A DNA stretch of 34,734 nt from the NCBI RefSeq assembly GCF_000485595.1, contig NW_014578263.1, positions 42,782 through 77,515 on the forward strand, given 5' to 3'. Positions 17,701-26,700 of the stretch are shown here, piece after piece. Every line of letters begins with the position of its first letter. Position 1 is the stretch's first letter. The position numbers and the translations under genes are program-made. The stretch comes from Priapulus caudatus. Taxonomy: Eukaryota; Priapulida; Priapulimorpha; Priapulimorphida; Priapulidae. Under the pieces are notes generated by a model. The model saw only the letters and a program-made list of their open reading frames with translations, did no database searches and had not been told where the DNA came from.

Positions 17701-20700
17701 AGTCCAATCTGCCTTCATTCGCATTGGGGTTTTTATTCATTCACAATCTGGTCGCAGCAAGCAGCTTATGTCTGAGTAAAAAAATGCAGCGCGCGGGTGG
17801 AAACAGAAAAATATCATTATGTCTGAGCATTTAATAAAAAAGACAGTTGCCTATTTCAAGCTCGCCTGATATTCGCTATTTTATAGTTCGACTTGTTCCA
17901 TTTTTGACAACTTGAACGCTCGATTCAAGAGTCTCTACTCAATCTTGGTCAAGAATAGCTTAGAATGCACCAAAGTTGCCACCCATGTCTTTTTAAAAAG
18001 TTCCGGGCGCGCCATGCCCGGACCCCCTCAGCATGGCGACTGACTACGGTTCCTCGCTTCGCTCGGCCTCGTGTTTGCTAATTAAATTTCTTTCAGCTGA
18101 AAATTAGATTGATCCAATTTCTCATCCCTGTAATGTAAGTGATTCTGTTCACCGTTTTTATGGCTTAAATTGGCCTTGCATTGTACTTTCTATTTACCAT
18201 ACTACCTAACCTAACACAAACCCTACACCTGGTTTTCCATCCATACAATTCCTTTTTCTGTCCTGCTGTTTGTTGTTCAGAGTTATTAATAACTAAGTCT
18301 TGACCTTCTCATTATCACGCTCTGCTGTAGATGTGACAAGTTAGGCCATCCTTAAAAGAATTCTATGTTTGCTGTTCCCGACCATGATTTTTTAGTGTAG
18401 TAGGTAGGTCATTTTTTTTTATGATGGCCATAATAGTTATTGTTAAGGCTGCTGTCTCATGTTCTGCCACACATAGCTTGTGTTTTCAGTCTTAATGCTT
18501 ATGAAAAATGAAAAAAAAAAATTATGGAACCCAGAAATGCTAAAAAAAACTTTTGGGTCGACGGGATTTTCGTGAGGTCGGTCGGGAGGCAGCCAACATG
18601 GAATACAAAACATTTGTCTGACCTGTGCGTTAACCCCCCCCCCCTGTTCAAACCCACATGCTCACACAACACAGACTTGCAAGCCCTTGTCACTCTTAGC
18701 CTGTTTACATTTAGACCTCAGCTGAAACGCATGCTATTTTTTAGCACATAGCCACTTTTTTTTTTAACCTAGCTCAAACACTACTGGTACTAAGCGTTGT
18801 ATTGTTTTCAGCTCGGCGGCACGATTGGCGACATAGAGGGCATGCCGTTTGTCGAGGCATTTCGGCAGTTCCAGTTCCGTGTCAAACAAGAGAACTTCTG
18901 TGTTGTGCACGTCAGCCTTGTTCCACAGCCGAAGGCTACCGGCGAACAAAAGACAAAGCCAACGAGCACAACGCAACGCGAGCGTGCAGGGAGCTGAGAG
19001 GCGCTTGGCTCTGCTACACCAGACTGGTGAGTGAGTCGAGGGATGGGTATTAGTATCTAGCTTTGGCTGTCACGGGGAGATCCGGTGGTGAGTGAGTGAG
19101 GGGACTGGTATACGTAACGTTATAGTGCTCGAGGAGTTGTTCACACAGACTGGTGAGTGAGTGCAGCGGAGAGGGGAATGGATAGGTGGAACGCCAAGCT
19201 AAAGTGGAAGGTAACGGGGATGATAGACCGAGAGAGGTCGGATAAGATGAGGGCGTAGAGCCTGTGAGTGGACTATTTGAGTCGGCGAAAGCGCTTAGAG
19301 CCTGGTTGAGCTGAGTGGAGGGGATGGTATAGTAACTTAGCTTGGCTGTGCACCCAGACCTGGGCTGAGTGAGATGAGGGTATTTGAGCATTGAGGAAGC
19401 TTTGACGAGGAGTATGGGGGTAGGTCAGTGGGTTGTCGCACGTTGAGCGGGGCTTAGACCTGCGTGAGACTCGCATGTGAAGGGGTATGGGTATATAAGT
19501 ACTTAGGCTTGGCTTGGTCAGCCGAGACCTGGTGAGGGTGACGTGAGGAGGAGGACTGCGCTCATGACGTACTCTGAGGTCGCGTGTTATGTCACCAGAC
19601 GCTGGTGTGAGTGAGTGGAAGGGGATGCGGTATAGTTACTGAAGCTCAGGTTTGTCACGAGAATAGTGGCAGTACCTGGTGAGTGAGGTGCTAGACAGGG
19701 ATGTGGTATAGAGTTAAAACCGAAGTAGCGCGGGTTTGTCAGCCAGACCTGGTGAGTGAGTGAGTGAGGGAGTGGTATATGGGTGACTCTAGCTTGGCTT
19801 GTCAGCCTGGAGAAGGCGAGACAAAGAACCTGAGGTGAGAGCTGAGTGAAGTGGAGAGTTGGGTATCAAGGTACATATAGCTCGGCGTGCGTGCACGCAG
19901 ACCTGCTGAGTGAGTGATCGGGGAGGAGGTATAGGTAGGCTTAGCTTGCGGGCTTGTCACCGGAAGAGCGCTGGTGCCAGAGGAGTGAGATGATGGGATG
20001 GTAGGTAGGTATGTTAGAGCTGGCTGTGTCACCTCAGACCATGGTGAGTGAGATAGGGGGCGGATGGTATAAGATAGAGGTGTACTCTGTTAGAGTTGGC
20101 CATGGATCACGTGCAAGGGACAGTGTGAGTGAGTGAGTGAGGGGGGATTGAGCGTGATCGGAGGGGGGTACGGCGATGATAACGATGGAGATAGCTCAGT
20201 GGTTGGTGGCACCGGGAGAAGGCAGAACCGGAACTGGTGAGTGAAGGGTGAGTGAGTGAGGGGATGGTATAGTAGCACCTTAGTCAGGGTGTCACCAGAC
20301 GATGGTGAGTGAGTGAGGGGATGGTATAAGTGACTTAGGCTAGTGGGACTGTCACCCGAAGACACTGGTGAGTGAGTGGAGGGGATGGTAATAGTACTTA
20401 AGTTTGGGTTGTCACCAGACCTGGTGAGTAGGTGGAGGGATGGTATAGTACTTAGCTTAGGGCCTTGTCACCAGACCTGCGGAGTGAGTGAGGGATGGTA
20501 TAGGTACTTAGGATCGGGTTGTCACAGACCTGCGTGAGGTGAGTGAGGGGACATGGTAATAGTACTTAGCTCAGGTTGCTCACCAGGAGACCTGGTGAGT
20601 GAGTGCAGGATGAATACGCTTAACTAGTAAGCTAGCGCGGATGTACAGACGTGGTGAGTGAGTGAGGGATGGTATAGTATTAGCTCGGGAGTTGTGCGGA

Positions 20701-23700: not shown

Positions 23701-26700
23701 ATAGCTGGACATGTCACCAGACCTGGTGATGAGTGAGGGGACTGGTATACGTACTTAAGCTTGGTTTGTCACCCAGACCTGGTGAGCTGAGTGAGGGGAT
23801 GGTATATAACTTAGCTCAGCTTGTCACCGAGACCTTGGTGAGGTGAGTGAGGGGATGGTATAGTATTAAGCTGGTTGTCCAACCAGACGCTGGTGAGTGA
23901 GTGCAGGGAATGGTATCCACGTACCTCTAGCTTGGGTTTTGTCACCAAGGACCTGGTGAGTGAGTGAGGGAATGCTATAGTAACTTAGCTTGGGTTGTCA
24001 GCCAGACGCTAGTCGGAGTGAGTGAGCGGGATGGTAATAAGGTACTGTAGCTGGGTTGTCACCAAGACGCTGGTGAGTGGAGTGAGTGAGGGGATGGGTA
24101 TGAGTACTGGCTAGCTTGGCTTGTCACCAGACCTGGTGAGTGAGTGGGGGATGTGTATGAACGTCCTTAAGGCTTGCGGTTGTCACCGACCTGGTTGAGT
24201 GAAGTGGGGATGGTATAGGTACTTAGGCTTGGGTTTCACCCAGACCTGGTGCGTGAGTGAGCGGGATGGCTAATAGTACTTAGGGCTTGGGTTGTACACC
24301 AACGCTGGTGAGTGAGTGAGGGATGGGTATACGTACTTAAGCTGGGGCTTTCACCCAGACTGGTCGAGTGAGGTGAGGGGCTGGTATATTTACTTAGCTT
24401 GGGGTTGTCACCAGACCTGGGTGAGTGAGTGCAGTGGGAATGGTATAGCTACTCTAACGTGCGGCGTTGTTCACCAGACCTGGTGAGTGAGTGAGGGGAT
24501 GGTATTAGGTATTAGCTCGGGGACATTTGAGACCTGGTGAGTGAGTGAGTGAGGGGATGGTCATAGTAACTTAGCTCGGAGCTTGTCACCAGACCGTGGT
24601 GAGTGAGTGAGTGAGGGGAGTATAGGTACTTAGCTCGGTTTGTCACCAGCACCTGTGAGTGAGTGAGGAGGATGGTATGAGTAGTCTTAGCTGGGTTGTC
24701 ACCAGTACCTGGTGAGTGAGTGGGGATGGTATATGTACTTAGCTTTCAGGTTGCACCAGACCTGGTGAGTGAGTGAGGGGATGGTATAGTACTTAGCTCG
24801 GGTTGTCACCAGACCTGGTGAGTGAGTGAGGGGATGGTATAGTACTTAGCTCAGGTTGTCACCAGACCTGGTGAGTGAGTGAGGGGAAGTGGTAAATAGA
24901 CTTAGCTTGGGTTGTCCCAGGCCTGGTGATGAAGTGAGGGGATGGTATAGTACCTTCCTTTGGGTTGCCACGCAGACCTGGTGAGTGAGCTGAGGGGATG
25001 GTATAGTAGCTTTAGGCTTGGGTGTCACCAGACCTGGTGAGTGAGTGAGGGGATGGTATAGTACTTAGCTTGGCTTGTCACCAGACCTGGTGAGTGAGTG
25101 AGGGGATGGTATAGTACTTAGCTCTAGCTCTGTCAGCAGGGACCTGGATGATGAGTGAGGGATGGTATATAGTGAAGTCTAGCTCGGGTTGTCACCAGAC
25201 CTGGTTGAGTAGAGTGATGGGGATGGTATAAGTACTGTGACGCTCAGGCTTGTCAGCCACGACCTGGGATTGAGTGAGTGAGGGGATGGTATGTACTTAG
25301 CTCGGGTTGTCACCAGACTGGGTGAGTGAGCGCAGGGATGGTATAGCTACTTAGCTCAGCTTGTCACCAGACACTGGTGAGTGACTGAGGGGCATGGGTA
25401 AATAAGTACTTAGCTACAGCTTGTCCCCAGACCTGGTGAGTGAGTGAGGGGATGGTATGAGTACGTAGCCTCGGGTTGTCACGCCAGACTGGTGAGTGAG
25501 TGAGGGGATGGTATAGTACTTAGGCTCAGCTTTGTCACCAGACCTGGCTGAGTGAGTGAGACGGGGAATGGTAATATGTATAGCTTGCTTGTCACCAGAC
25601 CTGGTGAGTGAGTGAGGGGGATGTAAAATAGGTACTTAAGCTTCAGAGCTTTGTGCACAGACCTGGTGAGTGAGTGAGAGGGGATGTATAGGGTACTTCG
25701 CCTGGGCTTGTCACGCAGACCTGGTGAGTGAGTGAGGAGGATGGTATAGGTAGCTTCGTAGGCTCGGGTTGTCCACAGCATCCGTGGTGAGTGAGTGGAG
25801 TGAGTGAGGCGGATGGTAATAGTACATGAATAGGCTGCAAGCTTGGGCAACCAGACCTGGTGAGTGAGTGAAGGGATGGTAATACGTACTTAGCTTGGTT
25901 TGTCACCACCAGACCTTGGGTGAGTGAGTGAGGGGGATGGTATAAGACTGTAGCTCGGGTTGTCAGCCCAGACCTGGTGAGGTGAGCGTGAGGGGATGGA
26001 TACCTCTTGCCTCGGGTTGTCACCAGAACTTAGGGGTGAGTGGAGTGAGGTGAGGGATGGTACGTAGAGGTACTAGCTTGGGGTGGGGTTGTCACCAGAC
26101 CTGGTGAGTGAGTGAGGGAATGGGTAATAGCGTAAACTGTAGCTTGGCGTTTCACCAACCTGGTGAAGTGGAGTGAGCGGGGATGGTATAGTACTAAGTA
26201 GCTTGGGGTGTGAAATCACCAAGTGGCACTGATGAGTGCAGTGAGTGGGGGTCAGTCGAGGCTGCTCGCGGGCGCGCGAGCGGCGGTCGGGAGCGGATCG
26301 GATGTAGCGCGCGTGGTCAGGGCCTGGCTGGGACGTGTCGAGAAGCCTCCCTGCGGCGCGGGCGGTACGGCTAGCAAGTTGATAATAGTCAAGAGTTCAC
26401 TGGTGACTTAGTGGATGCGCCAGAATGTAAGGGACTATTTTGGGAAGCGCGATATAGGCCACGGAGCAGGAATGTGTGTAGGACTCGACGTGACCATCCG
26501 TGGAGTCATACGCTTGCCTGGGCTGGCAGTAGTATGCCGTGGGAAACGAAGTTAAGGTGAGTGTACCGAGCTGTATGACGAATGTGAGCAACAGGCACAG
26601 CAGCGCCTCTGTGGCCGGTTACGTGGAGATCTATAGCGGTCCGGGTCCAGCACGCTAACGAGGATCTCAAAGTAACATGGTAGGCTGTGAAGAATGCTAC

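What the first reader, a model, noticed from the sequence alone, without database searches (positions are those of the whole stretch)
19007..26230. A 7.2-kb array of about 130 copies of an exon-intron junction
The 53-bp unit is not plain intron satellite. Its first 21 nt are the end of CTP synthase exon 4 (LGLSPDL) and its other 32 nt are the start of intron 4, so every copy reproduces the authentic 5' splice site CAGACCTG/GTGAGTG in native context. The spliceosome would face about 130 equivalent donors over 7 kb. How the first one is chosen, and whether the array acts as a U1 sponge, slows splicing or regulates CTP synthase output, is an open question.
Basis: partly seen in the sequence, partly recalled or inferred. 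Interest (0 to 1): 0.88.

Follow-up and report, generated by a model that had tools for sequence, protein, structure and literature searches.

The report
Huge exon-intron junction repeat in a worm
In the gene for the enzyme CTP synthase of a marine penis worm, a 53-base piece straddling an exon and its intron has been copied head to tail more than a hundred times, a kind of junction repeat that I found described only in lancelets, and the gene probably still works because splicing uses the copy attached to the real exon.

Summary
A 53-bp unit (21 nt of exon end reading LGLSPDL, plus 32 nt of intron with donor CTG|GTGAGT) repeats from exon 4 of CTP synthase. I count about 122 units, not 130. 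The stretch looks like uncorrected long-read sequence (15% insertions), so about 6.5 kb of units appears as 7.2 kb. The right end is unresolved: the array stops at a 3.4-kb block that may be base-call noise, and exon 5 is missing, so the count may be a lower bound. The animal is Priapulus caudatus (cox1 100%).

The feature has a name. Tandem duplications of exon/intron boundaries are "mirages" in lancelets (PMC3087553, PMC3902484), reported not to disturb splicing. Two more lie in this gene: a donor array after exon 2 and an acceptor array before exon 8. A chaperonin exon elsewhere has one at each end. In a small sample, boundaries were not duplicated more than expected (5 of 58 against 7.3%).

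Best reading: a tolerated minisatellite, perhaps born at microhomology, whose donors are decoys. Only the exon-proximal site keeps the frame. A U1 sponge or regulatory role is unsupported but untested.

The parts
14575..14740 (+). CTP synthase coding exon 1 (MKYILV...EHG), donor ACG|GTGAGG
   Evidence: tblastn 93% to a recalled human CTPS1 probe; own-genome protein search; boundary read, donor energy
16010..16180 (+). Coding exon 2 (EVYVLDD...GKTVQ), donor CAGG|GTAAGA
16177..16728 (+). Second junction array: about 15.5 units of 34 bp starting on the last 4 nt of exon 2 (CAGG); each unit carries two donor-like sites. Ends nearly free of insertions, middle insertion-rich
   Evidence: TRF; decomposition with insertion rates 0.00 / 0.17 / 0.017 left, middle, right; sequence; U1 energies -8.9 and -9.4
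17172..17275 (+). Coding exon 3 (VPHITD...EVCIIE), several frame breaks in the assembly
   Evidence: frameshift-tolerant alignment score 101
18812..19026 (+). Coding exon 4 (LGGTIGD...LGLSPDL); clean up to about 18960, insertion-rich after
19004..26260 (+). The 53-bp junction array, about 122 units (21 nt exon 4 end + 32 nt intron 4 start)
26280..29650 (.). Stretch without repeats or detectable exon, G rising to 53%, dinucleotides close to random: possibly illegible long-read sequence or a misjoin that hides the array's 3' end and exon 5 (not proven)
29779..29779 (.). Single N, probably an assembly join
29800..29949 (+). Coding exon 6 (VICIHD...LAER), two 1-nt frame breaks
30942..31074 (+). 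Coding exon 7 (RHEKPYD...KVDIK)
31212..31467 (+). Acceptor junction array: 51-bp unit, about 5 copies, each ...TACAG| plus about 18-20 nt of exon 8 start; 6-nt microhomology TGATCT between the exon and the intron at the unit joint
   Evidence: TRF 96% matches, no indels over 31240-31465; decomposition 5.1 units; five TACAG sites ending 31244, 31294, 31345, 31396, 31447; joints read
31448..31534 (+). Coding exon 8 ([11 protein letters not shown]...KLCAS), end approximate

Best explanation
The array is a junction-spanning minisatellite ('mirage') in intron 4 of the CTP synthase gene of Priapulus caudatus. Shown: unit anatomy, its position at exon 4, computed donor strength, in-frame stops, and the sister arrays. 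Inferred origin: a first tandem duplication, perhaps at short microhomology as at the exon 8 array, joined a point about 32 nt into the intron back to a point 21 nt before the exon end. Unequal exchange or slippage then expanded and homogenised it. Inferred behaviour: the copies are decoy donors that splicing normally ignores. Only the copy next to exon 4 completes a defined exon (its own acceptor about 215 nt upstream). Use of any later donor would retain intron reading V-S-E-stop in frame, and such transcripts would be lost. The array is tolerated rather than used.
For: Unit = LGLSPDL exon end + donor, 122 copies. The first extension reads LVSE* and 53 is not a multiple of 3. The same gene has a donor array at exon 2 and an acceptor array at exon 8 whose unit also reads to a stop (FIEADDF*), so the exon-proximal site is the frame-keeping one in both polarities. 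At the exon 8 array exon and upstream intron share 6 nt (TGATCT) at the joint (a random pair shares 6 or more with P = 0.0004); one of the four internal joints keeps these letters, three have T for C. In a chaperonin gene on C91 one exon is flanked by an acceptor array (77 bp x 2.5) and a donor array (28 bp x 6.6), so the process recurs. Lancelet mirages in Adh3, globins, TnC and PGBD5 are reported or inferred not to interfere with splicing (passages seen). Variation along the unit shows no special protection of the donor beyond homogenisation.
Against: No RNA evidence was available, so first-donor use is inferred. The array lies in noisy sequence whose 3' end and exon 5 were not found, and nothing after residue 364 of the enzyme was found. 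In 5 chaperonin genes junction duplication is no more frequent than repeat coverage in general (5 of 58 against 7.3%, P = 0.42), so junctions are not shown to be hotspots. Three arrays in one gene may therefore largely reflect a repeat-rich genome.
Confidence: 0.75

Rival explanations
1. Functional array: the donors act as a U1 landing strip or decoy that delays splicing, shields the intron from premature polyadenylation, or lets a poison extension tune CTP synthase.
For: Each unit has a donor near the strongest in the window (-10.0 kcal/mol; 2% of 350 background GTs at -7 or lower) plus a G run; 108 of 122 units keep GTGAGT; a later donor gives an in-frame stop.
Against: No constraint specific to the donor columns: variation is low everywhere except three exonic columns, as homogenisation alone would give. 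Similar arrays sit in a chaperonin gene. A single gene's transcripts seem too few to titrate U1 (general knowledge, not tested).
Confidence: 0.1
2. Micro-exon array: ..TTAG|CTCGGGTTGTCACCAGACCTG|GTGAGT.. could be spliced as 21-nt in-frame exons, repeating LGLSPDL in some isoforms.
For: 21 nt, phase 0, flanked by AG and a donor; 111 of 122 units keep the AG; translation LGLSPDL.
Against: The AG lacks a clear pyrimidine tract (read from the unit, not scored), the within-unit introns would be 32 nt (adjacent units would have to be skipped), and LGLSPDL lies in the conserved synthase domain where insertion is unlikely to be tolerated (inference).
Confidence: 0.03
3. Assembly artefact: the array or its length was created by gap filling with raw reads.
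For: Insertion-rich sequence from about 18960 on (15% overall, 0.25 to 0.08 along the array), odd block 26.3-29.7 kb, single N, exon 5 not found. The 34-bp array has nearly insertion-free ends and a noisy middle.
Against: Random errors cannot make 122 copies of one 53-mer that matches exon 4. The exon 8 array (96%, no indels) and the chaperonin donor array (96%, no indels) lie in sequence without such errors.
Confidence: 0.07
4. Plain intronic satellite that resembles the exon end by chance.
For: Repeats are dense in this genome; arrays cross boundaries no more often than random placement gives.
Against: 21 nt encode the exact conserved heptapeptide in frame and the adjacent bases are the authentic donor. 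Array edges lie near exon edges: 5 of 9 within 25 bp, random placement P = 0.00005 (a criterion chosen after seeing the data; an earlier run with 7 of the 9 arrays gave 4 of 7, P = 0.0004).
Confidence: 0.02

Closest known systems
Lancelet 'mirages' (Branchiostoma Adh3, globins Gb6 and Gb9, TnC, PGBD5), PMC3087553 and PMC3902484
   Same: Minisatellite-like tandem duplication of an exon/intron boundary; donor or acceptor side; units of tens to about 160 bp; cryptic AG/GT in the copies while the native exon edge is kept
   Different: Different phylum (Priapulida); about 122 copies here against 6 and 3 in the two Gb6 haplotypes (copy numbers for Adh3 were not seen); three arrays in one gene; somatic instability (Adh3) and normal splicing were reported there and not tested here
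Intron gain by tandem duplication of AG/GT proto-splice sites (Rogers-type model, cited in PMC3087553)
   Same: Duplication brings new splice sites; the unit has both AG and GT
   Different: No sign here that a new intron or exon is in use; the extensions read meet an in-frame stop
Ordinary intronic minisatellites / VNTRs
   Same: Expansion, homogenisation, long-read assembly trouble
   Different: The unit includes coding sequence and the authentic donor

Membership tests
Mirage (junction-spanning minisatellite) | Tandem repeat unit spans an exon/intron boundary | tested here: met
   21 nt LGLSPDL + 32 nt intron with GTGAGT; also arrays at exons 2 and 8; the exon 2 array overlaps the exon by only 4 nt
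Mirage (junction-spanning minisatellite) | Native junction retained at the exon-proximal end | tested here: met
   Donor at 19027 in noisy sequence; donor at 16181 and acceptor ending 31447 in clean sequence for the sister arrays
Mirage (junction-spanning minisatellite) | Unit length in the published range (10-72 bp Adh3, 150-160 bp globins) | tested here: met
   53, 34 and 51 bp; published ranges
Mirage (junction-spanning minisatellite) | Does not disturb normal mRNA splicing | not testable with these tools
   No RNA data held for this animal
Mirage (junction-spanning minisatellite) | Length instability between alleles or tissues | not testable with these tools
   One assembly; only one CTP synthase locus found
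Mirage (junction-spanning minisatellite) | Found in cephalochordates (taxonomic range in the papers seen, not a structural criterion) | tested here: not met
   Own-genome cox1 is 100% identical over 98% to Priapulus caudatus; lineage Priapulida, Ecdysozoa
Intron gain by AG/GT duplication | A copy is used as a new exon or intron | not testable with these tools
   Sequence argues against: VSE* and FIEADDF* read-through
U1 sponge / decoy | Measurable U1 occupancy or effect on splicing | not testable with these tools
   Only hybridisation energies computed

The most novel reading that the evidence does not exclude
Priapulus carries junction minisatellites as a widespread, largely silent load, and the CTP synthase array, with 122 or more strong donors in one intron, works as a U1 landing platform that delays intron 4 splicing or protects it from premature polyadenylation, making CTP synthase output depend on a hypervariable repeat.
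Probability: 0.06. Interest if true: 0.85.

Novelty: new member of a known kind. Interest (0 to 1): 0.52.

Why it matters
I found junction arrays described only in lancelets (searches; open-licence papers only, and several of these listings show only the top 10-15 of many hits). An ecdysozoan with donor arrays and an acceptor array in one housekeeping gene suggests that duplicated splice junctions are tolerated well beyond lancelets. It also gives a natural test of splice-site choice. With more than a hundred near-identical donors the first must win, and with five near-identical acceptors the last must win. Exon definition predicts both, whereas 'first transcribed wins' predicts only the donor case. 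The same structures are raw material for intron and exon gain.

Tried and rejected
Lancelet origin: my first guess from the mirage literature was that the window is Branchiostoma; cox1 of the own genome showed Priapulus. CTP synthase protein searches did not name the species.

Exon 5 (27 residues, VVCRC...EPEQ in the human probe): frameshift-tolerant search of 26000-29800, + strand only, gave score 31 against 24-35 in 6 shuffles, so not found. The whole-genome protein search matched 5 exon pieces, all on C1200, none covering residues 207-256 or beyond 336; tblastn of the window reaches residue 364.

Junction hotspot idea: 31 of the 47 chaperonin exon matches (those on 5 contigs) gave 58 boundaries; 5 lie in direct repeats against 7.3% background (P = 0.42). 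One of the 5 (L034 position 2988) is doubtful, because a better acceptor lies about 28 nt further on. So not enriched. For the CTP synthase gene one search used 7 arrays, leaving out two short TRF rows (14533-14570 and 14746-14781) and widening some by self-BLAST; one search repeats it with all 9.

Noise reading of 26.3-29.7 kb: results against it are that the whole block's mean dinucleotide deviation (0.068) is above 5 shuffles (0.029-0.055), and that two of six control stretches in the window are lower (0.054, 0.065).

Donor enrichment in other arrays: of 55 TRF rows (period 20-200) in the window and 21 other stretches, 11 reach -8.5 kcal/mol. Five of those rows are pieces of the window's own two donor arrays; outside, L017 (two rows), L003 and L021 beat all 30 shuffles, L016 and L019 do not. 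Of the 210 kb in the 21 stretches, 121.75 kb are N, so only about 88 kb were readable. L017 starts about 25 bp after a plausible donor of a 166-aa ORF; exons for L003 and L021 were not established. Simple-sequence rows were not removed. Suggestive only.

Higher-order repeat structure in the array: top lag 29 units, mean similarity 1.85 against about 1.6 shuffled, best of 59 lags, so not claimed. Constraint on the donor: none shown. One search's donor lines for exons 1 and 6 were mis-registered; the right ones are. Searches ended in script errors after printing the results used; the microhomology null that failed was run. A chaetognath genome paper (PMC12460157, passages) proved irrelevant.
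Full report
What is there. The window is the end of contig C1200 (42782-77515 of 77515) of a 385-Mb assembly in 2952 contigs. Its mitochondrial contig encodes a cox1 100% identical over 98% of the query to Priapulus caudatus, so the animal is a priapulid worm. The + strand carries CTP synthase. Exons were placed by tblastn and reading: 14575-14740, 16010-16180, 17172-17275, 18812-19026, 29800-29949, 30942-31074 and 31448 to about 31534. The whole-genome search found no other CTP synthase locus (5 matches, all on C1200). The 27 residues expected between exon 4 and 29800, here called exon 5, were not found, nor anything beyond residue 364 of the probe.

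The array. TRF and a wrap-around alignment agree on a 53-bp unit: GTGAGTGAGTGAGGGGATGGTATAGTACTTAG followed by CTCGGGTTGTCACCAGACCTG. The second part encodes LGLSPDL, the end of exon 4, in frame. From 19001 to 26260 there are 121.9 units. Against the unit the sequence has 15% insertions, 3% deletions and 3.6% mismatches. The insertion rate drifts from 0.25 to 0.084 and back to 0.17 along the array. The 34-bp array after exon 2 has nearly insertion-free ends (0.00 and 0.017) and a noisy middle (0.17). This is what gap filling with raw long reads looks like (inference). The visible disagreement between units is therefore mostly sequencing error. Only columns 34, 35 and 37, in the exonic half, vary strongly: minor fractions 0.34, 0.20 and 0.30 against a median of 0.017.

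Its right end. Fit to the unit falls to shuffle level at about 26280. The next 3.4 kb has no more repeated 9-mers than shuffles (86 pairs against 48-89). Its G content rises to 53%. In four 850-bp pieces the dinucleotide chi-square per degree of freedom is 1.3-2.0; in 105 control segments the median is 3.4 and 16% are that low; the shuffle 95% point is 2.05. Against this, the block as a whole deviates slightly more than shuffles do, and two of six control stretches of the window deviate less. I read it as probably illegible long-read sequence or a misjoin, followed by an N at 29779, but this is not proven. If right, 122 is a lower bound.

Donors. The unit's donor CTG|GTGAGTGA pairs with the U1 5' end at -10.0 kcal/mol. 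The other donors of the gene give -8.8, -8.9, -9.6 and -5.6 (exons 1, 2, 6, 7) and -11.3 for a candidate at exon 3. Of 350 other intronic GTs 2% reach -7, the two best -10.2. Using the next donor would add V-S-E-stop to the protein; 111 of 122 units keep that stop.

Sister arrays. The exon 2 donor (CAGG|GTAAGA) is followed by 15.5 units of 34 bp beginning on the last four exon bases. Exon 8 is preceded by about five 51-bp units, each with TACAG and the first 18-20 nt of exon 8; read from an upstream acceptor they give FIEADDF-stop. At the unit joint the exon (GATGATCT) and the upstream intron (TTCTGATCT|CTAATTT) share 6 nt; a random pair of places shares 6 or more with P = 0.0004. One of the four internal joints keeps these letters, three have T for C. 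Thus in one gene the first of many donors and the last of five acceptors are the frame-keeping ones. Exon definition predicts both (established concept; applied here by inference).

Elsewhere in the genome. Five chaperonin genes (PF00118) were fetched. On C91 one exon (DMFCAGR...QIGKE) has a 77-bp acceptor array of 2.5 copies (81% matches) before it and a 28-bp donor array of 6.6 copies (96%, no indels) after it, the latter running into Ns. Overall 5 of 58 boundaries lie in direct repeats against a 7.3% background. Junctions are hit about as often as other sequence: no hotspot shown, but no avoidance either.

Comparison. PMC3087553 (passages seen, including part of its abstract) describes 'mirages' in lancelet globin genes: tandem duplications of 5' or 3' exon boundaries, 150-160 bp in globins and 10-72 bp in Adh3, 6 and 3 units in the two Gb6 haplotypes, with RT-PCR suggesting no interference with regular splicing. 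PMC3902484 (one passage seen) adds TnC and PGBD5. The Adh3 paper itself was not seen: one look-up, by an id recalled from memory, was not held. Searches combining Priapulus with repeat and intron terms and mirage terms listed no report outside lancelets; the library is open-licence only and most listings are capped. I therefore file the finding as a new member of a known kind, in a new phylum and of unusual size.

Verdict. Most likely a tolerated minisatellite. A functional role is open and testable.

Noticed in passing
2729-2923 and 3855-4001 (- strand), 1207-1251 (- strand): HDAC8-like exons on the opposite strand (71% over 65 aa and 53% over 49 aa to a recalled human HDAC8 probe); segment 1145-1389 repeats 2768-2991 at 88%, spanning the acceptor side of one exon
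   Followed up: partly
7002-10467 and 10472-13778: A 3.4-kb segment duplicated in tandem at 89.5% identity
   Followed up: no
L003:1-2545 (C1200:32782-35326): 117-bp array of about 22 copies whose unit carries donor-like sites on both strands (the strands read by eye); gene context not found
   Followed up: partly
L036:3469-3956 (C91): Chaperonin exon flanked by an acceptor array and a donor array, the donor array ending in Ns
   Followed up: yes
L017:6745-7495 (C1350): Array of CACAGGTGAGTGTGAGTAAA-type units about 25 bp after a putative exon end, near a coding stretch with zinc-finger-like motifs (motif recalled)
   Followed up: partly
33968-34106 and 34433-34719: 35-38-bp minisatellite (TGTATGTGAATGCCATGTGTAAGTATACATAGCTA) at the contig end, with a donor-like GTAAGTAT per unit (donor read by eye)
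   Followed up: no
G000:C1568:75493-76781: A second, broken cox1-like stretch with many stops
   Followed up: no
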